From Candidatus Gastranaerophilales bacterium (lineage in GTDB: Bacteria; Cyanobacteriota; Vampirovibrionia; Gastranaerophilales; Gastranaerophilaceae): DNA of 64,000 nt. The DNA is taken from contig CALUVT010000002.1 in the NCBI GenBank assembly GCA_944324345.1, positions 248,001-312,000 of the forward strand, read 5' to 3'. The notes beneath the pieces are model-generated. The model was not told where the DNA came from and ran no database searches. It worked only from the letters and a program-made list of their open reading frames with translations. Below, piece by piece: positions 3,437 through 50,075 of this stretch (position 1 is its first letter; each line of letters begins with the position of its first letter). The position numbers and the translations under genes were made by a program.

Positions 3437-3997
3437 ATGCAGGCTATCGGATCACAACCAAATTTTACAGGAATATATAGAATAAAAAATACTCCTCAAA
3501 ATGTAAAAGAATTAAGTGAAAAGGTCTTACCTATGTATGAATACATAAGAAAAGAACCTTTTACATTTTATATAGGAGATAACCCTTTTGTCCAAGGACT
3601 TGATATAATTAAGGAAATTGTAGCAAATGCCAACCAAGCATCAAAAGCTTGGCTTGAAATGAATGCAAAAAATCATGGGCAAATCCTTCCGAATTCCAAT
3701 ACGGACTTTATTCATATTATTACTTCTAAAAAAGATGTACAAGAATTTGTTGAATATGCTCTCAAACGCCTTAAAGCTCTTGAGAATACTCCTCTAAATA
3801 GAATAAAAAATTTCTTTAGAGAACGTTTTGGACAGAATGAAAATCCAAATCTCCCTGAACATTTGCAGATAATGGATAAAGCAATAAATTTATATGAAGC
3901 AGAAAAAGCCGAATTTAACAAATACTTACAAGGCAAAAATATTGTTTCAGTATCGTCTCCACAAGATTTATTGTACAAAATGATGACTGAAAAATAA
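3437..3997 (+). CDS. Hypothetical protein with N-terminal NFTG motif (186 aa)
   Basis: AAAGGAGG precedes ATG 3437. The product starts MQAIGSQPNFTGIYRI, another case of a Phe-Thr-Gly motif within the first dozen residues. It continues as a soluble, mostly helical protein with no signal peptide and no recognised domain. It lies 49 nt after the phosphohexomutase on the same strand and before a strong terminator, so co-transcription is possible. Function unknown. Confidence 0.7.
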   Translation: MQAIGSQPNFTGIYRIKNTPQNVKELSEKVLPMYEYIRKEPFTFYIGDNPFVQGLDIIKEIVANANQASKAWLEMNAKNHGQILPNSNTDFIHIITSKKDVQEFVEYALKRLKALENTPLNRIKNFFRERFGQNENPNLPEHLQIMDKAINLYEAEKAEFNKYLQGKNIVSVSSPQDLLYKMMTEK

Positions 3998-8903: not shown

Positions 8904-9062
8904 TTTTTTGATTTTTAGAGTGGATATTTTTTAATCTTTAAGTTTAACTTTTATATTACAATTTGTTACAAAAGTCTTTTTATTATTAAAGATTTCAAAT
9001 GCAAATGCCGTTACTCAGTAGTGAAAGTTACTAAGGAAATCGAAAGGATTAGCGAGACAACT

Positions 9063-11234
9063 ATGGGAATGGCAGCAGGACAAGCTAGATTATTATCAAT
9101 CACATCTCGTATGTCTGATAACGAGCTTAGAGCTCAGATTATCAACAATCAGAAGATGCGTCTTGCAACAGAAAGCTCACAAGTTAGTGAAGCTTATGTT
9201 AATGCTTTGAACCAGTCTCAAATGATGTTCACGAATTATGATGCTGACAACAACACAAGTTATCAGCAATTAACATTTAATTCACTGACATCTTACAATC
9301 CATATAATAACCAGTACGGACTTGTAAATGCATCAGGTCAGTTGCTTGTTTCAGAAAAAGATGCAACTAATTTTGAGAAAGCTAATGGCAACATGGAAAC
9401 TTTCCTTGGCTATTATGGCTTAGAAGAAAATACAACTTATTTTGACGAATTAGAAAAGAACTATTCAAATGTAATATATAAAGACGCTGATGGTAATACG
9501 CTTTGGGATCCGGCAGCTAATGACTACCATATCCCAATCATGGCTACAGATCAGAATGGAGTTACAACATATGTTGATTCCGGATATACTGCAGAAGAAT
9601 TAAAAGATATGTTCATGGGTTATAATGGACATCGCGGATACGATGCAGCACTATCATCATCAACATATAATGACTACCTCGGGTATGCAGAAAAATTTGA
9701 TGCTGCATATACAACATACGCTACTGCAATAGCAGATATAATAGCAACAAAATTTGAATCACTTGGAGCATCCGAGATTCAAGTATATCTTGATGGGGAT
9801 ACTGCTTCTGAAGGTGAGAATACAATATATTTAGAAAAATTAAGAAACCTTATTATAAACTCGAAAGATAACTCTGATTACAAAACCAATGCAGAAACGA
9901 AAGCATATTTTGATGAGCTGATTGGCACTGATGGTAATAGCGGTAAAATTGTTGATTTAATAAATGGCAAAAACATCGAAACTATTGGCGGTACAAATGG
10001 AACATTTGCAACATCAGGTGAAAATGGCGTAATTATTGATGATTCAATGCTTATAACAAAAACTGATGATGGTAAGTATATTTTACAACTTGTACAAGCT
10101 GTCATAGAAACTAATTCAGAAGGTAAAGAAACAATTACAGGTTATGAGCCTGTAACTGAAACTGTAGAAACTGAATCCGGGCCAGTAGAGCAAGCTGCTT
10201 TGAATGTAACTCTTGATCCAGATAATTCCGGATATGAAGCATCTAATGGTGTAACATATACTTTTGGAGCAAGTATAGAAGAGCTTTACAATACTGCACT
10301 TGATAAAGCCAAAGGAAATAATCCAAACCTTGATAAATGCTATATAACAGCTACTTCTGCAATGACGGCAGATGAAATCAAATCAGAGATGGAAAGTATT
10401 TTTGATAAACTAAAAAATGATGTCTATGTACTCTGGTCTGGAAATGACGCACTATATGCCTATGATGCAGGTGGCAAAGAGACAGAAGCACACAGAGCAT
10501 ACAGAGAAGCTGCTGCAGCCTTTATGGCACATTTGTTAGGTGGAGAAGCACAAGGAGTAAGTTATGCTGAATATAATAAAGGAGCAGATATCGTTGCTAT
10601 AACCGTTAACGGCAAAAGCTACACGATAAGTTTAAGCACAATTAATGCAATTGCAACTGACACAGCGGAATTACAAAATTTTATAATTAACGGTGTTGAA
10701 ACAGAAGAAGGCGAAATATTGAAACCTACTTCAGATGAACTTCAAGATTTGGTTGATGTCATCGTATTAAACAACGTAATGAATACATACGGTGAACCCA
10801 ATGTAACTTGGATTGACGTAAATAATCCAAATGAAAATGGAGAAGCTAAATACAATTGGTATTCAAACTTATTCACACGTATGCAACAAGGCTACAAAAC
10901 TTTACAGGACGGACTTGCTTCAAGTAATGAGTGGATACAATTTGCACTTGAAAGCGGTATCGTAACAATGGAACAAGTTGATTCTGAAAATAATTGGAAT
11001 GGATTAAACTATGCAAATTGTAGTGATATCACAGAACAAACAAATGATACAGCTGTTTCAATAGCAGAGGCCGAATACAATGCTGCAATGAACAAGATAG
11101 AAAACAAAGATAAAAAATATGATCTAGAGTTGAAAAATATAGATACAGAACACAATTCACTTCAAACTGAATATGATTCTATTAAATCAGCCATAGATAA
11201 AAATATTGAAAGAACATTTAAAATATACAGCTAA
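9063..11234 (+). CDS. Large uncharacterised, possibly exported filament-like protein
   Basis: About 723 aa from ATG 9063 (MGMAAGQARLL); a GTG start at 9021 would add 14 residues. I prefer 9063 or 9069, because the conserved-looking helix starts there and AAAGGA and GCGAG lie upstream. The N-terminus is a long amphipathic helix (SITSRMSDNELRAQ and on). The middle is rich in Asn, Asp, Thr, Tyr and acidic residues. The C-terminal ~50 residues form a coiled coil (DLELKNIDTEHNSLQTEYD) ending FKIYS. Helical ends around a variable middle recall flagellin/hook-type axial proteins, but no such domain is recognised. No classical signal peptide. Confidence 0.65.
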   Translation: MGMAAGQARLLSITSRMSDNELRAQIINNQKMRLATESSQVSEAYVNALNQSQMMFTNYDADNNTSYQQLTFNSLTSYNPYNNQYGLVNASGQLLVSEKDATNFEKANGNMETFLGYYGLEENTTYFDELEKNYSNVIYKDADGNTLWDPAANDYHIPIMATDQNGVTTYVDSGYTAEELKDMFMGYNGHRGYDAALSSSTYNDYLGYAEKFDAAYTTYATAIADIIATKFESLGASEIQVYLDGDTASEGENTIYLEKLRNLIINSKDNSDYKTNAETKAYFDELIGTDGNSGKIVDLINGKNIETIGGTNGTFATSGENGVIIDDSMLITKTDDGKYILQLVQAVIETNSEGKETITGYEPVTETVETESGPVEQAALNVTLDPDNSGYEASNGVTYTFGASIEELYNTALDKAKGNNPNLDKCYITATSAMTADEIKSEMESIFDKLKNDVYVLWSGNDALYAYDAGGKETEAHRAYREAAAAFMAHLLGGEAQGVSYAEYNKGADIVAITVNGKSYTISLSTINAIATDTAELQNFIINGVETEEGEILKPTSDELQDLVDVIVLNNVMNTYGEPNVTWIDVNNPNENGEAKYNWYSNLFTRMQQGYKTLQDGLASSNEWIQFALESGIVTMEQVDSENNWNGLNYANCSDITEQTNDTAVSIAEAEYNAAMNKIENKDKKYDLELKNIDTEHNSLQTEYDSIKSAIDKNIERTFKIYS

Positions 11235-14783: not shown

Positions 14784-15797
14784 ATGACTTTTAATTCTTT
14801 CATGGACAGTATAGGCAATGCATTTAAAAAAGGCTGGAACAATGGTAATCTTGCCAAGGGAATTAGCCTGCTTGGGGCAACAACGTTTACCGTTGGTCTT
14901 ACAGGTGCCGCAATTCATGATATGAATAAAAATAGGTGTTTTGGCAGTTGTGGCAGTATATGGTCATTTAGACCACCATATAACCCAATGAATTACATGA
15001 TGGGCATGAATCTACTGCAAAATAGTATGCTTATTAAGGCAAATCAAAATAACTTATATGCATATAATGGCATGGGAGGCTTACCATTTGTTTCTTCAGG
15101 ATTCCAGTACAATCCTTATGGAGGGATGAACAATTTTTATAGCATAACGGGTGGCATGAACCCTTATCAGTACGGACAAATGTTGATGCAACAGGCTTGT
15201 GCACAAATGCAAAATACCGGTATTACTGACGTTATAGGAGCAACAAAACAGAACAATGAATATGCCGGCGAATGGAAAGCAGATCAAAGTACTGAAGCAG
15301 GAGAACAATTTGATAATGCTTTAAAAGGCATGAATGATTCTGAAGGGAATCCTATTGAAGGGAAAACATTTAAGATTTCAGATGCGGAAAATGCAACAGA
15401 ATATCGTCAAGACCTCTCGGAATTAGGCAAGTCGTACGCTGCATATATTGAAAAAACAAGCGGTAACGGTGATAGACTTTTAAATGAAGAAGAATACATA
15501 AAATTTGAACTTTCTCAGCTACCAAGTGACGCCACAGAAGAACAAAAAGCTAACATAAAATTAGCTGGTCATTATGCATTTTCAAGAATAGATTTAAATA
15601 AAGATGGTAAAGCTGATTGGAAAGAAATTGCAGCAGCAATCGCAACATTTGACACAAATAATAAGGATAAATTAGATGGTCAGGTAACTTCAACAGATGC
15701 ATATAATATTTCAAGTGCATTAGGGAATCCAAATGATCCAACATTCTCACAAAAAATAATTAAAAACTATAAACACTTATTTGGAAATAACGAATAA
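14784..15797 (+). CDS. Uncharacterised protein with C-terminal EF-hand
   Basis: 337 aa. The N-terminus has a weakly hydrophobic segment (AKGISLLGATTFTVGLTGAA) followed by a Met/Asn/Tyr/Pro-rich stretch (PPYNPMNYMMGMNLLQN). The C-terminal third holds a canonical Ca-binding loop DLNKDGKADWKE at 270-281 and a degenerate second one about 20 residues later. Resembles the protein at 23022 in overall style and in its promoter element, so the two may be co-regulated. GAGGA precedes the ATG. Its 3' end overlaps the convergent csaB by 21 nt. Location and role unknown. Confidence 0.68.
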   Translation: MTFNSFMDSIGNAFKKGWNNGNLAKGISLLGATTFTVGLTGAAIHDMNKNRCFGSCGSIWSFRPPYNPMNYMMGMNLLQNSMLIKANQNNLYAYNGMGGLPFVSSGFQYNPYGGMNNFYSITGGMNPYQYGQMLMQQACAQMQNTGITDVIGATKQNNEYAGEWKADQSTEAGEQFDNALKGMNDSEGNPIEGKTFKISDAENATEYRQDLSELGKSYAAYIEKTSGNGDRLLNEEEYIKFELSQLPSDATEEQKANIKLAGHYAFSRIDLNKDGKADWKEIAAAIATFDTNNKDKLDGQVTSTDAYNISSALGNPNDPTFSQKIIKNYKHLFGNNE

Positions 15798-23021: not shown

Positions 23022-23969
23022 ATGGGTTACTATGGTATAACAGGCTGGTCAGGCGGAGGCAGAAGACCTATAAATTATGGGTTAAAAGCTGGGCAGTTTA
23101 GAATGACAAAATATAATATCCCTCAAAATACAACCATTATCAATAATAATATTTCGGTTGGCGGTTACAGAGGAGGTTATAATTATAATTATTTTGACAA
23201 CCAATGCTATAATAACTCAACTCCTAGTTGGCTGAATTGGATGATGGGCATCGGCCTTGGGACATCATTGCTAGGCAGCATCTTAAGCTTATTTGGCGGC
23301 AACAGAACGGAAGCCGGTGCTCAGGAAACAGGTACAAATCCAGCAGGTACAAATCCTAGAGCTACAGGGCAAGAGCAACAAGGTGAATTTGATGGGCTTA
23401 AACAGCTTTACCCAGACGGAAGCTTTTCAAAAATCGGTGACACATACTATGCACTAATTGATGGAGTTCGTTATGAATCTAATACAATAGATGGTTTACT
23501 TGATGAAATTCCTAGTGGACAAACAGCAGTTCAGACTCCTGAGGCTAAAGATAGCGATGAGACTCCAGAGCTAACAGCACTTGAACAAGCATACCAAAGT
23601 AATGATGTAGACAACTACGCGCCTGTTAAATTTGAAGAAAATAATTTAGCAAATATATTCAAAAACATTTCCGGCGTATTTGACTACGGTAAAGATAGCA
23701 ATGGCAGAGAAATTGGTGATTTCGAAAACGCCAAAGCTGACTTACAGGGTAAAACAGAATTCAAAAAAGGTGACATTATACAAATTGGCGGAAAAAATTA
23801 CAAAATCCTTAATACAGATGGTTTCGTATACCTTCAAGATGTTGATTCAACCAGAAATGGTAATCAGGTATACATACTAGAAAAAACAGCCTCAGGGGCA
23901 TATCAATTGTCACAAAGAAGTTTCACTGGAACAGAAGGTTTTGGAAGAGCCGCTTGGCCACAATCATAA
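23022..23969 (+). CDS. Uncharacterised Gly/Asn-rich protein
   Basis: 315 aa. The N-terminal ~60 residues are rich in Gly, Asn and Tyr (GWSGGGRRP, GGYRGGYNYNYFDN). One hydrophobic segment WMMGIGLGTSLLGSILSLFG lies around residues 70-90. A polar linker and a C-terminal beta-rich domain follow, with a FKKGDIIQIGGKNYKIL motif like small SH3/KOW-type barrels (weak resemblance). AGAGG precedes the ATG. A single-gene unit between its own promoter and a terminator. Shares promoter architecture with 14784. Function unknown. Confidence 0.66.
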   Translation: MGYYGITGWSGGGRRPINYGLKAGQFRMTKYNIPQNTTIINNNISVGGYRGGYNYNYFDNQCYNNSTPSWLNWMMGIGLGTSLLGSILSLFGGNRTEAGAQETGTNPAGTNPRATGQEQQGEFDGLKQLYPDGSFSKIGDTYYALIDGVRYESNTIDGLLDEIPSGQTAVQTPEAKDSDETPELTALEQAYQSNDVDNYAPVKFEENNLANIFKNISGVFDYGKDSNGREIGDFENAKADLQGKTEFKKGDIIQIGGKNYKILNTDGFVYLQDVDSTRNGNQVYILEKTASGAYQLSQRSFTGTEGFGRAAWPQS

Positions 23970-28149: not shown

Positions 28150-28590
28150 TTATTTTAAATATTTTTTTATTATTTTTGCAGCTTCTTTTGAAGATAAATT
28201 TAGCTCTTCTGTTGTTATTACGGGTTCAGAATCTGAAGAGCGTTTAAGATTAAAATTAACAAAAGGCTTTCCTTCAAAATTTCCATTTGATAATGTTAGT
28301 TTTGCTTCTTTACCAAATACAGTTTCTTGTACAAAAAGATCCACTTTTCCTGATTTAGCGCCATACACACCCAAATTAGTTTTAGCACTATATCTGTTTT
28401 TCATTAGTTTCATAAAAATATCACTAACAACATCTTCAACAATCTTTTTCTGAGATACCCCTGAAAAAGACACACTATCTGAATTCACAGCTAAATTAAA
28501 ACGAGGATTTAAAGTTCTTCCTTGGTTGTAATTTAGAGAATTAAAAAAAATAGGGGTTACATACGGGGTATTTGTAATTTTTGAAATCAT
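28150..28590 (-). CDS. Hypothetical protein with N-terminal FSG motif (146 aa)
   Basis: AAGGAT precedes ATG 28590. The N-terminal ~45 residues are polar and probably disordered and end in SVSFSGVSQK. A compact alpha/beta domain follows, rich in Lys and Phe (LTLSNGNFEGKPFVNFNLK). No signal peptide, membrane segment or recognised family. A stand-alone minus-strand gene between the helicase and the structured-leader gene. The FSG motif links it loosely to other short unknown proteins in the window. Confidence 0.62.
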   Translation of the reverse strand: MISKITNTPYVTPIFFNSLNYNQGRTLNPRFNLAVNSDSVSFSGVSQKKIVEDVVSDIFMKLMKNRYSAKTNLGVYGAKSGKVDLFVQETVFGKEAKLTLSNGNFEGKPFVNFNLKRSSDSEPVITTEELNLSSKEAAKIIKKYLK

Positions 28591-31051: not shown

Positions 31052-31507
31052 ATGAAAATAGAAAGTTATCAAAACAGAAGTAATAATACATTTACAGGTT
31101 TCAGATTCGATAATGCTAGCAAAGGGAGATTTGTTAGGGTATTGCGAGAGATTAACGATCCAGTTTTTACAGATAAATGCAGATCAGTAATCAACAGTCA
31201 AAAGAAAAATCCAATACCAATAGACATAAGAAATATGGAACACTTCTTTGGACAAGAAGTAGATGATGGTTTTTTAGCTTATGTAAATGGAAAATTTTCA
31301 CACGACGATTCAGCAATTGATTCAATTGGATTGATGAATATTAGATGCATGATCGATGGGGAATACAGTCTTCTCAGATTCTTGAAAAAGGCAGCTAAAG
31401 AAGCAGACAACGTTTACCATAAATGCATGCATAGGGCGATAGAAAACGGACGTAATGAAACCAGATTGAATGAAAGAGTTATAAGAAGTATTGATGAACT
31501 GGCATAA
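31052..31507 (+). CDS. Hypothetical protein with N-terminal FTG motif (151 aa)
   Basis: AGAAGGAG precedes ATG 31052. The N-terminus SYQNRSNNTFTGFRFD carries the Phe-Thr-Gly motif seen in other short proteins here. The rest is soluble, helical and basic near the C-terminus, with no recognised domain. Its promoter region (TTTATAAGTGTTA) resembles that of the gene at 45760. Ends at a strong bidirectional terminator. Confidence 0.66.
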   Translation: MKIESYQNRSNNTFTGFRFDNASKGRFVRVLREINDPVFTDKCRSVINSQKKNPIPIDIRNMEHFFGQEVDDGFLAYVNGKFSHDDSAIDSIGLMNIRCMIDGEYSLLRFLKKAAKEADNVYHKCMHRAIENGRNETRLNERVIRSIDELA

Positions 31508-33336: not shown

Positions 33337-34332
33337 CTACTCTAAATTATTAATAACAGCTTCAGTAAAGGCAGAAGTTGTTAACGTTCCGCCTAAATCT
33401 TTAGTAAATGAGGAACTGTCAAAAGTTTTAAACAGAGCTTTCTCTATTTTTAGTGCATATTCTCTTTCCCCTATATATCTTAACATTTCTATAGCCGAAA
33501 GCAACATAGCTGTTGGGTTTGCAAGATTTTTCCCTTTTATATCAGGAGCAGAACCATGCACCGGCTCGAATACCGCATAGTCTTTACCAATATTTGCCCC
33601 CTGTGCTACCCCAAGGCCACCAATCAAACCTGCACAAAGATCTGATACAATATCTCCATATAGATTAGGCAAAACCAAAACATCAAACTGTGAGGGATTT
33701 TGTACTAATTGCATACATAAATTATCAACAAGAATTTCTCTAGTTTTAATTTGTTTATAATCACTCGCAACCTTCCTAAAACTTTCAAGAAAAAGCCCAT
33801 CAGAAAGTTTCATTATATTTGCCTTAGTAACAACACAAACTTCAGTGCGATTATTTTCAATAGCATAATCAAAAGCAAATTTGGAAATTCTCTCTGAAGC
33901 ACCTCGGGTAATAAGCTTTATACTCTCAGCAGTATCACAATCCACTTGTCTTTCAATCCCTGCATACAAATCCTCAGTGTTTTCTCTTACAACAACTAAA
34001 TCAACATTAGAAAACCGCGTTTTTATATTCGGGAGATTTTTACAAGGTCTAACATTGGCATATAAGTCCAATGTTTTTCTCAATTGCACATTTACAGAAC
34101 GAAATCCTTTACCAATTGGAGTAGTCACAGGAGCCTTTAAAGCGATACCATTTCGTTTAATAGATTGAATGACTCTATCAGGTAAGGGTACACCCTCCTT
34201 TTCTATAACATCTGCCCCCGCAGTTTGCAAGTCCCAATCTATCTTCAATCCTGAAGCATCTATAATCTTGACAACCGCATCAGAAATTTCAGGGCCTATA
34301 CCATCCCCATTAATCAATGTTATCTGTCTCAT
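33337..34332 (-). CDS. Isocitrate dehydrogenase, short NAD-type family
   Basis: 331-aa beta-decarboxylating dehydrogenase (isocitrate/isopropylmalate family). GDGIGPEI is at 9-16. FRSVNVQLRKTLDLYANVRP is the isocitrate-binding helix; Ser plus Asn-x-x-Leu-Arg favours isocitrate over isopropylmalate. ENTEDLYAGIE follows, then VTKANIMK and NLYGDIVSDLCAGLIGG with the metal-binding Asp residues, and GSAPDIKGKNLANP near the cofactor site. Oxidises isocitrate to 2-oxoglutarate. Overlaps the end of the small Cys-containing gene upstream. GAGGAA precedes ATG. Confidence 0.86.
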   Translation of the reverse strand: MRQITLINGDGIGPEISDAVVKIIDASGLKIDWDLQTAGADVIEKEGVPLPDRVIQSIKRNGIALKAPVTTPIGKGFRSVNVQLRKTLDLYANVRPCKNLPNIKTRFSNVDLVVVRENTEDLYAGIERQVDCDTAESIKLITRGASERISKFAFDYAIENNRTEVCVVTKANIMKLSDGLFLESFRKVASDYKQIKTREILVDNLCMQLVQNPSQFDVLVLPNLYGDIVSDLCAGLIGGLGVAQGANIGKDYAVFEPVHGSAPDIKGKNLANPTAMLLSAIEMLRYIGEREYALKIEKALFKTFDSSSFTKDLGGTLTTSAFTEAVINNLE

Positions 34333-34528
34333 TATTCCTCACAATATGTAATTTACGTTCAAATTTTTCAAAAAATCCGCAATTTTCAACGGTCAAACTA
34401 TCTTCAAGATAAACAACTCCAAGCCCTAAAGCAGTTAACAAAGGACAAGACACCCCTTTTGCATAATTCCTGCAATCCACACATTGATCATCTTCTTCAA
34501 TATAAATCTTACCGTTGTCGCAATACAT
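34310..34528 (-). CDS. Small cysteine-rich protein (72 aa), possible metal binder
   Basis: From ATG 34528 the product starts MYCDNGK and contains CVDC at about residues 16-19 plus further Cys at 3, 28 and in VENCGFF. The spaced cysteines suggest a zinc or Fe-S site. A TATAAT on the minus strand at 34540-34535 leaves exactly 6 nt before this ATG, so a leaderless start here is favoured over the longer frame to 34591. Overlaps the isocitrate dehydrogenase start by 23 nt, so co-expressed with it. Function unknown. Confidence 0.6.
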   Translation of the reverse strand: MYCDNGKIYIEEDDQCVDCRNYAKGVSCPLLTALGLGVVYLEDSLTVENCGFFEKFERKLHIVRNNETDNID

Positions 34529-34534
34529 ACAAGC

Positions 34535-34540
34535 ATTATA
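34535..34540 (-). promoter_or_regulatory. -10 box of a probable leaderless promoter
   Basis: TATAAT on the minus strand, 6 nt before ATG 34528. Confidence 0.45.
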
Positions 34541-34583
34541 CAACTCCTGAAGTCTTTTGTAAATAAATACATATTTAATATTT

Positions 34584-34610
34584 CTTAACAATTACAATTA
34601 AATTAGCAAT
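34584..34610 (+). promoter_or_regulatory. Divergent copy of the TTAACAA...AGCAAT element
   Basis: TTAACAATTAC followed by AGCAAT at 34605-34610, which begins 72 nt before ATG 34677. Same order as upstream of 618, 14784 and 35648. Confidence 0.35.
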
Positions 34611-34676
34611 AATGAAGAAAAAAATTTTTTCATATATGTAAGGTAGGTTAAGTTATAAACTATTGGAAGGTGTAAA

Positions 34677-35498
34677 ATGGTTGGTATCTCAAGAATATTA
34701 AAAGCTGGCGGAAAACTTTTATTTGATCCGACTTTTCAAGATACGGTAACAGAAACAATTAAAGCATCCAGAAAAACTATAGGGTACAGAAATATCCCCA
34801 AACAAATTGGCGATGCATTCGTTAAAGCTGAAAGAACAACGAGAAATACTCCGTTTTGGTCAAATTTAAAAGATTCATTAAAAAGTTTGTTTCCAGACAT
34901 GAAAAACGCTTGGAAAACAGCATCAGGTTTTGGAAGCAAGAGTAAAGGTGTTTTTAAAGAACTATGGAAAAGAATGCCATTGATTGGGGTTTTGATGACA
35001 GCAGCTTTTGAAGTCCCTAATATCCTATCTGCATTCAAAGATAAAGGCTTGTTCGGAGGAACGGCAGAAACCGGAAAATCAACGGTTAGATTAGCTGGAG
35101 CAACATCAGGCTTTATGATTGGGCAGGGATTAATTCCAATACCATTTGTTGGTGGTATCATAGGAGCTTACGTAGGTGATTGGTTAACAAGTAAAATTGT
35201 TGGCAAAAGCCACACTGAAAAAAAGGCAATAGCTGAAAGTCAAGGCCAAGTTCCATTTACTGAATTTGGAAAAGATAAACAATTAGATGTCGGACCTTTA
35301 TCAACATACCCATATCCCTCTTTTAGCCCGAATAGATATCTTGCAATGTCAAGCCAAAATTATATGCAGCCAACAATTAATCCACAACAATTAATGGCAA
35401 TGCAACAAATGTTATATAGTGGTGGGTTGGGGGATCCAATGAACCAAGACTTTATGGCTATGAATTCAGGTATTAACAGATTAAACTATATGTGCTAA
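34677..35498 (+). CDS. Glycine-zipper membrane-active-like protein, paralogue 1
   Basis: 273 aa, GGAAGG before ATG. A basic helical N-terminus is followed by MPLIGVLMTAAFEVPNILSA and then a Gly-rich hydrophobic hairpin, MIGQGLIPIPFVGGIIGAYV, around residues 145-170. The C-terminus is Met/Gln/Pro-rich. The same order (helix, E-(I/V)P-x-I-x-x-AF, Gly-zipper hairpin) occurs in the next gene, so the two are paralogues. Gly-zipper hairpins are found in pore-forming or membrane-inserting proteins; that role is inference. No signal peptide seen. Confidence 0.66.
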   Translation: MVGISRILKAGGKLLFDPTFQDTVTETIKASRKTIGYRNIPKQIGDAFVKAERTTRNTPFWSNLKDSLKSLFPDMKNAWKTASGFGSKSKGVFKELWKRMPLIGVLMTAAFEVPNILSAFKDKGLFGGTAETGKSTVRLAGATSGFMIGQGLIPIPFVGGIIGAYVGDWLTSKIVGKSHTEKKAIAESQGQVPFTEFGKDKQLDVGPLSTYPYPSFSPNRYLAMSSQNYMQPTINPQQLMAMQQMLYSGGLGDPMNQDFMAMNSGINRLNYMC

Positions 35499-35517
35499 TA
35501 GCAGCAAAAATAATGGC

Positions 35518-35553
35518 AAAAAGCATAAATCCTATGTGATTTATGCTTTTTTA
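35518..35553 (+). terminator. Intrinsic terminator
   Basis: AAAAGCATAAAT and ATTTATGCTTTT stem followed by T-run. Confidence 0.85.
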
Positions 35554-35565
35554 CTATTTAATATT

Positions 35566-35597
35566 TGTTAACAAAAATGTAAACTGAAAAGCAATTT
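35566..35597 (+). promoter_or_regulatory. Shared TGTTAACAAAAAT...AAAGCAATTT element
   Basis: TGTTAACAAAAATG at 35566-35579 and AAAGCAATTT at 35588-35597, almost identical to 14706-14735. The AGCAAT box lies 58 nt before ATG 35648 (56 nt at 14784). Confidence 0.5.
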
Positions 35598-35647
35598 TTC
35601 ATCACAATAATTTTTATTATAAATATAGGGGAAACTAAGGGGAAAAA

Positions 35648-36979
35648 ATGTTTAGCACGAGCGACATTATTACAGACAATAAAATATTGACAGATTATTT
35701 GTATGGAGTTCAAGCCCCATTACAAACGGCAAATATTTCTGATAAGCTTAAATCTTTAGAGACTGAAATGCTTACAGGTAGTGCTTTTATGCTTGCAATG
35801 CCGGTTTTAGGTTCAGCTTTAAAACCTCTAAAAATCTACAAAAATAGAAATGGTCAAACTTTTGCAGAGGCCTGGAAGAAAGCTGCAGCAGACAGTAAGG
35901 CAAATAGAGCAGTACTTAGCGGCAGTAATTTTTGGGAATCACGCAATAATCGCAGTCTTTTTAACGAAATAGACAGAATTGGGAAAGAACTCCCCACATA
36001 CAAAGCTGATGTTGACATAACACAATTAAATCAGAAAAAACTTTTGAAATATAATAACGCCAAAATAAAAAGTTCCTACTATGATGATGCAAGACGTTTG
36101 GTAGAAGAAACCAAGACAATGCTAGAAGATGCAAAAAATAATGGGACTAAAATATCAAAAGAACAATTAAAAAATCAATATAACAAAATCCTAAAAGCAA
36201 TGAGAGATGGTGATGCCAGAGTAAACATTGCAATGAAAAACGGTATTTTAAAGCCAACTTCAGCATATGGACGCCTAAAACACAACATTAAACTAAAAAC
36301 AGGTGCCTACAAATATAAAGGAGCAATGCTAAGGAGTGTAAAAGGAGCATCCGGCGTAAGGCTAGCATCTAAATGTGTTAAAGGTGCAGGTGTCATGGCA
36401 TTACTCGAAGCGGCCATAGAAATTCCAGATATTGTTGCAGCATTTAAAATAGATAAAGCAGAACGAGCACAAGGTAAAGAATCAAATAGAGCCCAAAAAC
36501 AATTATTAAAATCAGGGACAAAAGTCGGAGCAAGTATCCTTGGTTACGCCTTAGGTGCAGCAGCAGCCGGTACAATTGCCGGTTCAGTACTACCAGGTCT
36601 TGGGAATGCTGCCGGGGCAATTATAGGTTTTACCGGAGGGCTTATAGGAGGCTTTATAGCAAGCTTTACAGCCGGCAAAACTATGGATGCCGTAACAGGA
36701 GAAAAGAATTCTTTAGATATTTCAGAAAAAGAGCTCTACGCAGAAGAAAAAAACAGGGAAAAAATGCAAGCATCCGCACAAACTGCGAAATTAGGAGCCT
36801 TAAGCAACAAATACCAAGATGACATACTAAACGCTATTGCAAATGAAATCAACGAAGGTGGAGAATTGCCTGAGGAAGTTTTACAAGCGTTTGAAAATCT
36901 GCTAAATGAAAGAGAAAGTGGTCAAAGCAGGACATTAGATTTATTGGAAGATATTAACAACTTTGAATTTAGCGTATAA
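35648..36979 (+). CDS. Glycine-zipper membrane-active-like protein, paralogue 2
   Basis: 443 aa, AAGGGG before ATG. The long soluble N-terminal part includes a coiled-coil-like stretch (residues about 140-185). ALLEAAIEIPDIVAAFKIDKA near 250 matches the equivalent site in the 34677 protein. A strongly Gly/Ala-rich hydrophobic hairpin spans about 295-340 (GASILGYALGAAAAGTIAGS, GAIIGFTGGLIGGFIASF). The C-terminus is acidic and helical. Own promoter element and terminator, so the paralogues are separate units. Could be a pore-forming, scaffold or envelope protein; nothing decides this. Confidence 0.66.
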   Translation: MFSTSDIITDNKILTDYLYGVQAPLQTANISDKLKSLETEMLTGSAFMLAMPVLGSALKPLKIYKNRNGQTFAEAWKKAAADSKANRAVLSGSNFWESRNNRSLFNEIDRIGKELPTYKADVDITQLNQKKLLKYNNAKIKSSYYDDARRLVEETKTMLEDAKNNGTKISKEQLKNQYNKILKAMRDGDARVNIAMKNGILKPTSAYGRLKHNIKLKTGAYKYKGAMLRSVKGASGVRLASKCVKGAGVMALLEAAIEIPDIVAAFKIDKAERAQGKESNRAQKQLLKSGTKVGASILGYALGAAAAGTIAGSVLPGLGNAAGAIIGFTGGLIGGFIASFTAGKTMDAVTGEKNSLDISEKELYAEEKNREKMQASAQTAKLGALSNKYQDDILNAIANEINEGGELPEEVLQAFENLLNERESGQSRTLDLLEDINNFEFSV

Positions 36980-37010
36980 AAAACAGGGGTATCAAAACCC
37001 CTGTTTTTCT
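36980..37010. terminator. Bidirectional intrinsic terminator
   Basis: AACAGGGG (36982-36989) and CCCCTGTT (36998-37005) with T-runs on both strands. Confidence 0.8.
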
Positions 37011-37012
37011 AT

Positions 37013-37186
37013 TTAAATTGAAGATACATTAAAATCTCTTTCAGCACGACTAGAAGTACATTCAAATATAGGTTTTAAAAACCTCTCTATAGCAGCTTCC
37101 ATGGTGCTTATTTCATTTTTTAAAGCCTTATAATTTTCTTCTTTAACATCCCTCAATGCATTTTCAAAAATTTCATCATGGTACAT
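37013..37186 (-). CDS. Small helical protein of unknown function (57 aa)
   Basis: ATG at 37184-37186 preceded by AAGGAG at good spacing; stop TAA next to the bidirectional terminator. The product starts MYHDEIFENALRDVK and is charged and helical with one Cys. Size and N-terminus recall the 46-aa protein at 314-454. No family recognised. Confidence 0.55.
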   Translation of the reverse strand: MYHDEIFENALRDVKEENYKALKNEISTMEAAIERFLKPIFECTSSRAERDFNVSSI

Positions 37187-37359
37187 ATCCAATCTCCTTA
37201 TAAATCATGCAGATAAGACTGCAAACTACTTCACATATTCCCACTAACGGAAGATTTAACAACATTCTTTAATATAATTCACAATATTGTTACAAAATTT
37301 ATTATTTCTACAAAATAAAATAAGTTTAATGTAGAATATATAAGTACAGGGGAAAAAGA

Positions 37360-38193
37360 ATGGCAACTGATTTTTTAACAAGTTACGATTATTATTCTAG
37401 CAGACGCGATATGGAAGTCATATCAAATATAGTTGAGTCTTTGAAGAAAATTCTTGAAGAGGATAGACTACAAACACAACCTTTGTTTTTGAAAACATCC
37501 GAAAATTTAATCTTAAATATAGCAAGAAAAGTCGTTCAAGAAAAGAAAAAGACTTTCCTAATCGGCATTACGGGTGAAAGTGCATCCGGAAAAACCGTTT
37601 TTGTTGACAATACGATAAAGGCTTGTGTAAAAAAGAAAAAAGAAGGTATTTATACAGTTATACGATGTGATGATTATTACAAAGATACTTCTAAAGAATT
37701 GCTGCAAGCCGGAAGTTATGAAGAATTGTTTAAAACAGGATTTAGTTTTGATACTCCTGATGCAATTGATTTAGAGTTAATGAAAAAACATCTTATGAAA
37801 TTAAAAGCAGGAAGAGAAATTGTATCCCCTAAATATGATTTTGTAACTTGTGTTTCTGACCCTAACGGAGAAGTTAAAAAACCGGCGAAGGTTGTTTTGA
37901 CAGAAGGTTTATACGTCCTAAATGAAGGAATTAGAGATATTATGGACGTAAAAGTCTATGTTTATACCCCATTAGAAGTTATTAAAGAAAGATGGTATAA
38001 ACGAGCAGCATTGAGAGGTAAGACCGGAGCTGCGGCAGACCTTCAATTCCAAGATGTAAACAAGACTGCACAGCAATATATTCGTCCAGCCTATCAAATA
38101 TCCGATGCAGTTATCAATGGTATGGTTTCTCAAAAATACATACAAGATATTACAGATAAAATTTTTAACACTTTAAAAGATATTGTTGAATAA
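37360..38193 (+). CDS. Uridine kinase / phosphoribulokinase-family P-loop kinase
   Basis: 277 aa. An N-terminal ~65-residue helical extension precedes Walker A GESASGKT at 72-79, the IRCDDYYKD motif that positions the phosphate acceptor, SFDTPDAIDLELM, YDFVTCVSDP, and VVLTEGLYVLNE. This pattern fits uridine/cytidine kinase (UMP from uridine), though the extension and the weak base-binding region leave the substrate open. Single gene with its own terminator; AGGGGA before ATG. Confidence 0.82.
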   Translation: MATDFLTSYDYYSSRRDMEVISNIVESLKKILEEDRLQTQPLFLKTSENLILNIARKVVQEKKKTFLIGITGESASGKTVFVDNTIKACVKKKKEGIYTVIRCDDYYKDTSKELLQAGSYEELFKTGFSFDTPDAIDLELMKKHLMKLKAGREIVSPKYDFVTCVSDPNGEVKKPAKVVLTEGLYVLNEGIRDIMDVKVYVYTPLEVIKERWYKRAALRGKTGAAADLQFQDVNKTAQQYIRPAYQISDAVINGMVSQKYIQDITDKIFNTLKDIVE

Positions 38194-48432: not shown

Positions 48433-49755
48433 ATGAAGAAAAAATCTACAATATCAGGGACTTTCTACCCATCAGATAAAGAAGATTTAAAGCGGCTTAT
48501 ACAAGAATTTACAATCGAGCCGCCCAAATATAAATCTCGTGCAGTAATTGTTCCACATGCCGGTTACAAATATTCAGGCAGGCTGGCTGCGGAAGGTATC
48601 CAGCATCTTAAAAGAGATGCAAAAAATGTTTTTATATTTGCCCCCTCACACTATGAAAGAGTTTATGGATGTACTGTTCCTGAATACAGTTCTTTCGAAA
48701 CGATATTTGGGGATATTGAAATAAACACGGAACTTACAAAGCAAATTTCAAAGCTTTGCGACTGCAACATCAGTAACTACGCATTTGAAAAAGAACATTC
48801 AATAGAGGTTCAACTACCTTTTATAAAAGCATTCCTCCCTTCTGCTAAAATTGTTCCCGTCTTGTACGGTTGTGAAAATTTCAAAAACTTATGCAACACT
48901 TTAGAACATTTTTGGAATGATGAGGATAACGTTTTTCTTATATCAAGTGACTTAAGCCATTTTTATCCTGAAAAAGAAGCCGTTAAAATTGACAACTATA
49001 CAGCAAAAATGATTGAGGAGAACTATTTAAATAACTTTGAACAAGAACAGGCATGTGGTGCTGTTGGGATTTGCGGTCTTATTGAGTTTGCAAAAAAACA
49101 TAATTTTTCACTGATTCGAATAGGGCTTACAAACTCTGCAGCTACGACAGGGGATTCTTCAAGAGTTGTAGGTTATGGCAGTTGGTTTTTATACGAAGGA
49201 GAGAAAAATTATTATATAAAAAAATACTTTTCCGACTTTGTTGTAGATATTTGCAGAAAAAGCATTTTGTCAGGGCTGCAACTTGGTCAATTTAATATTA
49301 AAAATTATGATAGAGTTTTCGACGAATTTGGAGCATCATTTGTAACTCTCGAACTTGATGGAATTTTACGAGGGTGTATAGGCTCAATTATTCCCCACAA
49401 ACCACTATTGAAAGATTTACTGCATAACGCTCATGCTGCGGCATTTTCAGACCCAAGGTTTCCAACTCTTACGCTTAATGAATACAATAAAATTGCTATT
49501 AAGGTTTCACTGCTTTCAAAACCTGAAAGGATTGAATTTGAAACTGAAGAAGAATTACTTGATGTTCTAAAACCAGGAATCCACGGATTAATAATACGCG
49601 ACGGGAATTACCAATCAGTTTTCTTGCCTGATGTGTGGGAACAACTACCTGATAAGCAAGTCTTTATTGAACAGTTAAAACTCAAAGCAGGTCTGCCTAA
49701 AAATTATTTTTCTGAAAACCTTGAAGCATTTAAATTCACAACAACAAAAATTTAG
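48433..49755 (+). CDS. MEMO-AMMECR1 fusion (AmmeMemoRadiSam system proteins B and A)
   Basis: 440 aa in two domains. Residues 1-265 are MEMO-like (FYPSDKEDL, VPHAGYKYSGRLA, FIFAPSHYE, EHSIEVQLPF, LISSDLSHFYP), a dioxygenase-like fold with His residues placed for metal. Residues about 268-440 are AMMECR1-like (FVTLELDGILRGCIGSI, HAAAFSDPRFP, GLIIRDGNYQSVFLPDVWEQ). The two usually occur with a radical SAM partner, which is not in the window. The biochemical role of the system is not established. Overlaps the convergent small gene by 4 nt. Confidence 0.88.
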   Translation: MKKKSTISGTFYPSDKEDLKRLIQEFTIEPPKYKSRAVIVPHAGYKYSGRLAAEGIQHLKRDAKNVFIFAPSHYERVYGCTVPEYSSFETIFGDIEINTELTKQISKLCDCNISNYAFEKEHSIEVQLPFIKAFLPSAKIVPVLYGCENFKNLCNTLEHFWNDEDNVFLISSDLSHFYPEKEAVKIDNYTAKMIEENYLNNFEQEQACGAVGICGLIEFAKKHNFSLIRIGLTNSAATTGDSSRVVGYGSWFLYEGEKNYYIKKYFSDFVVDICRKSILSGLQLGQFNIKNYDRVFDEFGASFVTLELDGILRGCIGSIIPHKPLLKDLLHNAHAAAFSDPRFPTLTLNEYNKIAIKVSLLSKPERIEFETEEELLDVLKPGIHGLIIRDGNYQSVFLPDVWEQLPDKQVFIEQLKLKAGLPKNYFSENLEAFKFTTTKI

Positions 49756-50075
49756 TATAATAAATACAATTTTGGGCTTTCTAAACTTGCAGCCTCACCT
49801 ACATTTTCAGCATAACTGTCAGCGTTTGGTAATAAGCTGATAACAGATTGGTATGCATTACCATTAAAATCATTCATTTCAACCTGATTTTTAGACAAAC
49901 GTCTGTGATCCTCTTTTAAACCATTTAGTTGTTCATGGATAACATTAAGTTTATCGTTAATAACATCAAGTTTATCAGCGGTAGGTAAAAGTTCAAATCT
50001 TGAATTTGGGTAAGAAAACCCATTGTACTTACTTGAAGAACCAAAATTTAACCCACTTACCCTATTAACTAACAT
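49752..50075 (-). CDS. Hypothetical coiled-coil protein with N-terminal NFG motif (107 aa)
   Basis: AAAGGAG precedes ATG 50075. The start MLVNRVSGLNFGSSSKYNGF has a Phe-Gly motif like other short proteins here. A short coiled coil follows (KLDVINDKLNVIHEQLNGLK), with a leucine/isoleucine heptad. Lies 15 nt after dnaX on the same strand, so probably co-transcribed with it. No family recognised. Confidence 0.62.
   Translation of the reverse strand: MLVNRVSGLNFGSSSKYNGFSYPNSRFELLPTADKLDVINDKLNVIHEQLNGLKEDHRRLSKNQVEMNDFNGNAYQSVISLLPNADSYAENVGEAASLESPKLYLLY

What the first reader, a model, noticed from the sequence alone, without database searches (positions are those of the whole stretch)
34677..36979. 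Tandem glycine-zipper paralogues that look membrane-active
Two adjacent, separately transcribed genes encode proteins sharing an E-(I/V)P-x-I-x-x-AF helix followed by a Gly/Ala-zipper hydrophobic hairpin, on different N- and C-terminal bodies. Such hairpins occur in pore-forming toxins, phage tail-tip proteins and membrane remodelling proteins. No immunity-like gene is obvious beside them. They share the upstream element described above.
Basis: partly seen in the sequence, partly recalled or inferred. Interest (0 to 1): 0.5.

Follow-up and report, generated by a model that had tools for sequence, protein, structure and literature searches.

The report
Paired membrane-hairpin proteins under RpaB-like promoters
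Two neighbouring genes belong to a protein family found in nearly every sampled member of a lineage that appears to be the non-photosynthetic relatives of cyanobacteria; they encode related membrane-hairpin proteins and are probably switched on by a regulator known from photosynthesis control, which gives a concrete way to ask what that regulator does in cells without photosynthesis.

Summary
P1 (34677-35498) and P2 (35648-36979) are intact genes with their own promoters; different bodies surround a shared hydrophobic Gly-zipper hairpin (hhalign 98.8%, hairpin only). They do not look like a toxin cassette. P1 is in 33 of 33 same-genus genomes, P2 beside it in 32 of 33; the hairpin is in 183 of 192 genomes of the order. 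Viral-contig scans found no relative; neither protein reaches a Pfam cut-off. The hairpin resembles phage tape-measure segments.

The shared upstream element is the strongest part: a conserved direct repeat resembling the cyanobacterial HLR1/RpaB box, and a rigid GCAATT-N16-CTTTATAT promoter. Both recur in the genome, often before lineage-specific proteins (12 box sites in 424 kb against 0-2 with altered spacing; 38 promoter sites against 1 control). An RpaB equivalog is present.

Best reading: co-regulated, membrane-inserting proteins of what is probably the Gastranaerophilales, RpaB-controlled. Which membrane is unknown; both AlphaFold models failed. Boldest reading: a translocon-like pair of a second, flagellin-independent type III export system; nothing links them directly.

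The parts
34677..35498 (+). P1, 273 aa: N-terminal body, Gly-zipper hairpin, variable linker, conserved C-terminal tail
   Evidence: ORF; match in 33 of 33 same-genus genomes; alignment A1
34968..35225 (+). P1 hairpin region (residues 98-183), shared with P2
   Evidence: hhalign A1 vs A2, 98.8%, P1 columns 98-190; identity 0.61
35355..35495 (+). P1 conserved C-terminal tail (residues 227-273)
   Evidence: identity 0.60 against 0.32 for the linker before it; profile A3 matches in each of the 33 genus members (32 below 1e-10, one at 1e-4); other hits are E 0.06 or worse
35648..36979 (+). P2, 443 aa: long N-terminal body, Gly-zipper hairpin, C-terminal body
   Evidence: ORF; match in 32 of 33 same-genus genomes by the P2 query; alignment A2
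36365..36727 (+). P2 hairpin region (residues 240-360)
34573..34594 (+). HLR1-like direct repeat upstream of P1 (21.0 bits)
   Evidence: 3 mismatches to the strict HLR1 consensus here; position conserved in relatives
35556..35577 (+). HLR1-like direct repeat upstream of P2 (20.1 bits)
   Evidence: 3 mismatches to strict HLR1 here
34606..34635 (+). P1 copy of the GCAATT-N16-CTTTATAT promoter (3 mismatches in this genome)
   Evidence: sequence; form GCAAWW-N16-YTTTAT in 26 of 33 P1 upstream regions
35591..35620 (+). probable P2 copy of the same promoter (second half degenerate)
   Evidence: sequence; GCAAT in 28 of 33 but GCAAWW-N16-YTTTAT in only 9 of 33 P2 upstream regions
34640..34676 (+). 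P1 5' leader with two ribosome-binding-site-like repeats (AAGGTAGGTTA ... GGAAGGTG)
   Evidence: conserved in P1 relatives
35625..35647 (+). P2 5' leader with two GGGGAAA repeats
   Evidence: conserved in P2 relatives
35518..35551 (+). terminator-like hairpin between P1 and P2
37013..37192 (-). small ORF (59 aa) convergent with P2; relation unknown
   Evidence: relatives beside the pair in 9 of 23 loci, this one included
14784..15797 (+). regulon candidate: 337 aa Asn/Tyr/Met-rich protein with the exact promoter and an HLR1-like site
23022..23969 (+). regulon candidate: 315 aa Asn/Tyr/Gly-rich protein with the exact promoter and an HLR1-like site
9021..11234 (+). regulon candidate: 737 aa protein of a 'QARLLSIT(A/S)R' family with an HLR1-like site (14.8 bits)
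   Evidence: similar proteins in other genera with sites: L101 20.4 bits, L102 14.2 bits

Best explanation
P1 and P2 are paralogous, lineage-specific proteins that are made in the cytoplasm without an evident signal peptide (read by eye) and insert a Gly/Ala-zipper helical hairpin into a lipid bilayer. Their different N- and C-terminal bodies dock partners; in P1 a variable Gln-rich linker presents a highly conserved C-terminal tail. The tandem is a core feature of the genus; the hairpin family is core in the order (inferred to be Gastranaerophilales), where several genera have only one member. Each gene has its own promoter of one special type, GCAATT-N16-CTTTATAT or a degenerate form of it, preceded by an HLR1-like direct repeat that the retained RpaB response regulator most likely binds, so that the two are co-expressed with a set of other, mostly lineage-specific proteins. 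Shown: paralogy in the hairpin, distribution, synteny in the genus, conserved promoter and box, recurrence of both in the genome, an RpaB equivalog. Inferred: membrane insertion, co-assembly, RpaB binding and activation, and the cell's own envelope as first-choice site.
For: Distribution and synteny: P1 in 33/33 and adjacent P2 in 32/33 same-genus genomes (G024); hairpin profile A4 in 183/192 order genomes; of 90 hits in a phylum sample of 194, 4 lie outside the order. Paralogy; a third own-genome paralogue P3. Box: a matrix retrained without the own genome's sites gives 12 sites of 18 bits or more in 424 kb (P1 and P2 among them), against 0-2 at 11 other spacings, 0 for reversed columns and at most 3 for 40 column permutations; the 16 best sites are intergenic; 16 of 32 family genes in other genera against 14 of 316 neighbouring ORFs have a site of 14 bits or more, 5 of those 14 being the family gene's own site; strict HLR1 in 2/33 P1 and 8/33 P2 upstream regions, 0.000 in shuffles. 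Promoter: 38 sites against 1 for the control, spacer 16 in 8 of 9; P3 has the exact form. RpaB: 362.5 bits, cut-off 330. HLR1 definition from passages of PMC9241938.
Against: No structure supports membrane insertion: mean pLDDT 37.5 and 43.4 with 2 and 1 sequences. Hydropathy peaks are moderate (1.6-1.7) and P1's GxxxG count is only p 0.03. The window's own P1 and P2 boxes each have 3 mismatches to strict HLR1, and 3 or fewer mismatches occur in 38-45% of shuffled upstream regions, so the assignment rests on relatives and matrix. At the lower threshold of 14 bits the matrix finds 23 sites against 11 for spacer +1 and for reversed columns. Exact TTWACA repeats show no peak at gap 4. 16 of 32 family genes in other genera have no site of 14 bits; P3 has none. 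Only 9 of 33 P2 upstream regions have the promoter with its spacing. RpaB binding is untested and two other OmpR-family regulators are over the cut-off. Some regulon candidates are ordinary genes (by my reading an aminotransferase, infC and glnA).
Confidence: 0.55

Rival explanations
1. P1 and P2 are exported, membrane-inserting proteins (translocon-like or inclusion-membrane-like) of a second, non-flagellar type III export system kept in the order.
For: FHIPEP hits in 192/192 order genomes, falling into score classes; flagellin hits in 72/192 and in none of the 22 own-genus genomes sampled (hand-counted). The own genome has FliE, FliF, an unknown 340 aa gene, FliH and FlhA in a row. P1/P2 have no evident signal peptide and sit in a set of proteins of the same kind, one with a CHAP match below the cut-off (E 0.0015).
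Against: Neither the promoter nor an HLR1-like site of 14 bits was found in the 20 kb around the export operon. No translocator family among Pfam hits for P1/P2 and no translocator chain in PDB profile searches. FHIPEP is universal in the sample, so co-occurrence carries no information. Rod, hook and motor genes were not searched, so the system could still be a flagellar remnant.
Confidence: 0.2
2. Domesticated phage tape-measure fragments: the hairpin was captured from a phage tail protein and reused.
For: The best sequence resemblances are phage tail and tape-measure segments.
Against: The resemblance lies mainly in the Gly-rich hairpin and may be convergent; no viral-contig relatives; no phage genes recognised among the neighbours.
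Confidence: 0.15
3. Secreted pore-forming toxins or bacteriocins.
For: Hairpin type; weak pyocin S5 match (E 0.21).
Against: Conserved in place across the genus, one pair per genome, no evident signal peptide, no recognisable immunity gene.
Confidence: 0.06
4. Ordinary inner-membrane proteins; the repeat is an AT-rich promoter feature and not a regulator site.
For: Exact repeat counts by gap are not peaked; at 14 bits the controls reach half the observed count; AT-rich genome.
Against: Spacer-shift and column-permutation controls at 18 bits; enrichment at family genes in other genera.
Confidence: 0.15

Closest known systems
Phage tail tape measure proteins (PDB 9ki1; PHROG 167, 794, 23574)
   Same: Gly/Ala-rich hydrophobic segment; sequence similarity centred on it
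   Different: P1 and P2 are 273 and 443 aa, chromosomal, with no tail genes recognised beside them and no relatives found in viral contigs
Cyanobacterial HLR1 element / RpaB regulon (PMC9241938, passages)
   Same: Direct repeat (G/T)TTACA(T/A)(T/A) with 2 nt between; upstream of the promoter core; RpaB equivalog present
   Different: No photosynthesis gene recognised among the candidate targets; many sites deviate (TTAACA, TTAATA); most targets seen are lineage-specific proteins
Type III secretion translocators (SctE/SctB; recalled, from no call)
   Same: Tandem pair of hydrophobic-hairpin proteins without evident signal peptides; flagellar-type export genes in the genome
   Different: No sequence match; no chaperone or export gene recognised beside them
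Chlamydial Inc proteins (recalled, from no call)
   Same: Variable bodies around a short hydrophobic hairpin
   Different: No evidence of export; order-wide conservation

Membership tests
Phage tail tape measure protein | Similarity beyond the hydrophobic segment | tested here: not met
   PDB and phage-genome matches cover only the hairpin; some PHROG alignments extend into the bodies at E 1e-5 to 1e-3, too weak to count
Phage tail tape measure protein | Encoded in a phage tail module or viral contig | tested here: not met
Pore-forming bacteriocin | Adjacent immunity gene and patchy spread | tested here: not met
   Conserved distribution; no immunity-like gene recognised, although a small convergent ORF of unknown role is present
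Pore-forming bacteriocin | Pore formation | not testable with these tools
   Needs an assay
[quoted passage not shown]
   Exact in 2/33 P1 and 8/33 P2 upstream regions (shuffled 0.000); 3 mismatches in the window's own two
HLR1 element | RpaB in the same genome | tested here: met
   NF045944, 362.5 bits, cut-off 330
HLR1 element | Bound by RpaB | not testable with these tools
   Needs gel-shift or ChIP
Type III translocator (SctE/SctB) | Sequence match to a known translocator family | tested here: not met
   None among Pfam hits of the two proteins or PDB profile hits
Type III translocator (SctE/SctB) | Export dependent on the type III apparatus | not testable with these tools
   Some apparatus genes present; export untested
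Gly-zipper membrane hairpin protein | Hydrophobic helices with GxxxG spacing conserved in the family | tested here: met
   (P1 only p 0.03)
Gly-zipper membrane hairpin protein | Insertion into a membrane | not testable with these tools
   Structure models too poor

The most novel reading that the evidence does not exclude
The order carries a second, flagellin-independent type III export system (a divergent FlhA class kept even where flagellin is absent), and P1/P2 are its membrane-inserting pair, functionally like a translocon, expressed together with a set of exported lineage-specific proteins under RpaB. A regulator known from photosynthesis control would here run a host- or neighbour-contact programme in non-photosynthetic relatives of cyanobacteria.
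Probability: 0.15. Interest if true: 0.92.

Novelty: new variant of a known kind. Interest (0 to 1): 0.6.

Why it matters
RpaA, RpaB and NblS homologues were noted in Melainabacteria in 2013 with the remark that without photosynthesis they may have another function (PMC3787301, passages; see also PMC4040986, passages). A candidate RpaB target set that includes this conserved pair makes that open question directly testable. The pair also represents two protein families for which no Pfam match over the cut-off was found here, conserved across a lineage with little known biology. The side survey suggests that the incomplete flagellar gene sets reported for some members (PMC4040986, passages) may in part be a separate export system.

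Tried and rejected
Structure prediction: P1 with one relative (mean pLDDT 37.5) and P2 alone (43.4) were too poor, so no fold search was run. Family searches in Pfam, NCBIfam, PHROGs, PADLOC and PDB sequences gave hairpin-level or chance matches. Set aside: Membralin (P2, E 0.081), thylo_ssl2009 (P1, E 0.05), C19orf12 (5 of 24 P1 members, best 0.0014), DUF6861 (2 of 20 P2 members, best 2.9e-5), Gly-zipper_Omp (3 of 20, best 8.9e-5), DUF3482 (3 of 20, best 1.3e-4), PADLOC PDC-M09B (P1, 4.4e-7, best stretch residues 139-189). For members other than the two window proteins the tables give E-values only, so I cannot say whether a cut-off is reached. Exact TTWACA repeat counts by gap did not peak at the expected gap; the matrix controls at 18 bits did. 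The P1 tail profile gave no convincing match outside P1. A PDB search with the N-terminal part of the 9021 protein gave no flagellin or hook match. Rfam found nothing in 33800-37400. The promoter and box were looked for around the export operon and not found (upstream sequence read). Gene names such as serS, icd, udk, pyk, bamA, skp, infC, glnA and the aminotransferase are my reading of the sequences, from no call, and 'no signal peptide' was judged by eye.
Full report
What is there. P1 (34677-35498, 273 aa) and P2 (35648-36979, 443 aa) are intact ORFs on the + strand, separated by 149 bases that hold a terminator-like hairpin (35518-35551) and a second promoter region. P1 has EVPNILSAF at residues 112-120, P2 EIPDIVAAF at 258-266, each followed by a hydrophobic Gly-rich hairpin. 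GxxxG pairs exceed shuffles (P1 5 against 2.05, p 0.03; P2 8 against 2.74, p 0.0007). The families were aligned separately (A1, 24 rows; A2, 20 rows); profile comparison gives 98.8% and E 6e-17 over the hairpin only. In P1 the conserved blocks are the hairpin (mean pairwise identity 0.61) and the last 47 residues (0.60), against 0.32 to 0.37 elsewhere (23 of the 24 rows; the partial L060 row was dropped). The tail belongs to P1: its profile matches in each of 33 genus members (32 below 1e-10, one at 1e-4); all other hits in the 58 genomes are E 0.06 or worse.

Distribution. In the genome of the window (1.76 Mb, 5 contigs, 99.93% complete) P1 and P2 are single copy; a weaker third paralogue, P3 (297 aa, E 2e-7), lies elsewhere. 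Of 33 same-genus genomes, 33 have P1 and 32 have P2 beside it, by comparing coordinates; one of these, G024, was missed by the P2 query but has the gene at the next position; in G029 the P2 match is on another contig. Profile A4 (hairpins of both families) matches 183 of 192 genomes of the order at E 0.001. In a phylum sample of 194 genomes 90 match at 1e-4, 4 of them outside the order. Viral contigs: no relative confirmed in two pattern-based scans. Phage records: one hit for P1, a tape measure protein, none for P2. In the 20 stretches fetched from other genera and families the window's gene order recurs in part around the pair; several carry only one of the two genes. This is a conserved chromosomal gene pair of the genus and a core family of the order, not a toxin cassette or a prophage remnant.

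What it resembles. Neither window protein reaches a Pfam cut-off. Among relatives the best Pfam matches are in few members. PHROG and PDB matches point to phage tail, tape-measure and lysin profiles, centred on the hairpin; A1 finds no PDB chain up to E 10. Structure prediction failed for both, so membrane insertion rests on sequence.

The upstream element. Upstream regions of P1 and P2 in the genus conserve, in this order, a direct repeat of TTWACA type, AGCAATTT, an AT-rich second box and two ribosome-binding-site-like repeats of different type in P1 and P2. A matrix from the repeats was scanned over 464 kb of the own genome (424 kb of C2, 20 kb each of C1 and C3): the 16 best sites are intergenic. 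Retrained without own sites and scanned over the 424 kb, it gives 12 sites at 18 bits, P1 and P2 among them, against 0-2 for each of 11 other spacings, 0 for reversed columns and at most 3 for 40 column permutations; at 14 bits it is 23 against up to 11 for other spacings, 11 for reversed columns and up to 14 for permutations. The repeat fits the published HLR1 definition (passages of PMC9241938): exact in 2 of 33 P1 and 8 of 33 P2 upstream regions against 0.000 in shuffles, although the window's own two copies have 3 mismatches, which shuffles often reach (38-45%). In other genera 16 of 32 family genes and 14 of 316 neighbouring ORFs have a site at 14 bits; 5 of the 14 share a family gene's site. 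The second element, GCAATT-N16-CTTTATAT, occurs 38 times in the own genome with up to 1 mismatch against 1 for the reversed control, with a rigid spacer (8 of 9 at 16). In 30 of these 38 sites, which were looked at, genes behind it include P3, two Asn/Tyr-rich window proteins (14784, 23022) and several proteins without a Pfam match over the cut-off; one exact site precedes what I read as an aminotransferase, and several sites, mostly with 1 mismatch, have no sensible gene behind them. The genome has three OmpR-family regulators over the cut-off, one of them an RpaB equivalog (362.5 bits, cut-off 330).

Mechanism. RpaB (or a relative) acts on the repeat, the special promoter fires, P1 and P2 are made together with other mostly lineage-specific proteins, and their hairpins insert into a bilayer where the zippers pack. 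The conserved bodies and the P1 tail bind unknown partners. The regulatory steps are inferred from sequence and from what is known of HLR1 and RpaB, the membrane steps from general knowledge of Gly-zipper hairpins. The cell's own envelope is the default site.

Export alternative. FHIPEP hits occur in 192 of 192 genomes, flagellin hits in 72 of 192. By hand count of the two tables, 69 genomes have a best FHIPEP hit below 1e-240 and all 69 have flagellin; of the other 123 (best hit 1e-181 to 1e-222, except G068 and G138 with only about 1e-48), 3 have flagellin (G041, G112, G167). In the capped match list at least 23 of the 69 also show a second, full-length FHIPEP near 1e-218, the class that the own genus has. 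The own genome has FliE, FliF, a 340 aa gene without Pfam match, FliH and FlhA in a row and no flagellin hit. [quoted passage not shown] Rod, hook and motor genes were not searched. Nothing ties P1/P2 to this system directly: neither promoter nor box was found around its operon, and there is no translocator homology. I keep it as the novel case.

Literature. Nine searches were made, covering HLR1/RpaB, and Melainabacteria, Gastranaerophilales, Gastranaerophilaceae or Vampirovibrionia with secretion, type III secretion, T3SS, flagella, RpaB, glycine zipper or secretion system. In the listings and in the passages read I saw no description of this pair, of the promoter, or of an RpaB target in this lineage. 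I read passages only, of PMC9241938, PMC3787301, PMC5877343, PMC4040986, PMC9025218 and PMC7018530; the other listed papers were not opened, and one search listed 15 of 167. The library holds only open-licence papers.

Noticed in passing
L170:5158-11136 (own genome contig C1, about 443.2-449.1 kb): FliE, FliF, an unknown 340 aa gene, FliH and FlhA in a row in a genome with no flagellin hit; FHIPEP falls into score classes across 192 genomes and only the strongest follows flagellin.
   Followed up: partly
L171:7223-8701 (own genome contig C3, about 317.2-318.7 kb): A 492 aa protein whose only Pfam match is the C-terminal half of FHIPEP (profile 321-655), without the membrane part, a few genes downstream of what look like bamA and skp.
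   Followed up: no
genome-wide; e.g. upstream of window 14784-15797 and 23022-23969: GCAATT-N16-CTTTATAT promoter class with 38 sites in the genome, several before Asn/Tyr/Met/Pro-rich lineage-specific proteins; possibly an alternative sigma factor.
   Followed up: partly
L093:1486-2379 (own genome contig C2, about 424 kb): Third paralogue P3 (297 aa) with the same hairpin type and the exact promoter but no HLR1-like site; longer look-alikes occur in other families of the order (L111:8338-9474, L112:7834-8850).
   Followed up: partly
window 37013-37192 (-): Small 59 aa ORF convergent with P2, with relatives beside the pair in 9 of 23 loci.
   Followed up: no
window 3437-3997, 31052-31507, 28150-28590 (-), 49752-50075 (-): Several small proteins of unknown function carry an F-(T/S/G)-G type motif near the N-terminus (NFTG, FTGF, FSG, NFGS); could be a shared signal (read).
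   Followed up: no
window 9021-11234; L101:15600-17525 (-), L102:9417-10880 (-): A family with 'QARLLSIT(A/S)R' near the start recurs in other genera with HLR1-like sites upstream; no Pfam match over the cut-off for the window member.
   Followed up: partly
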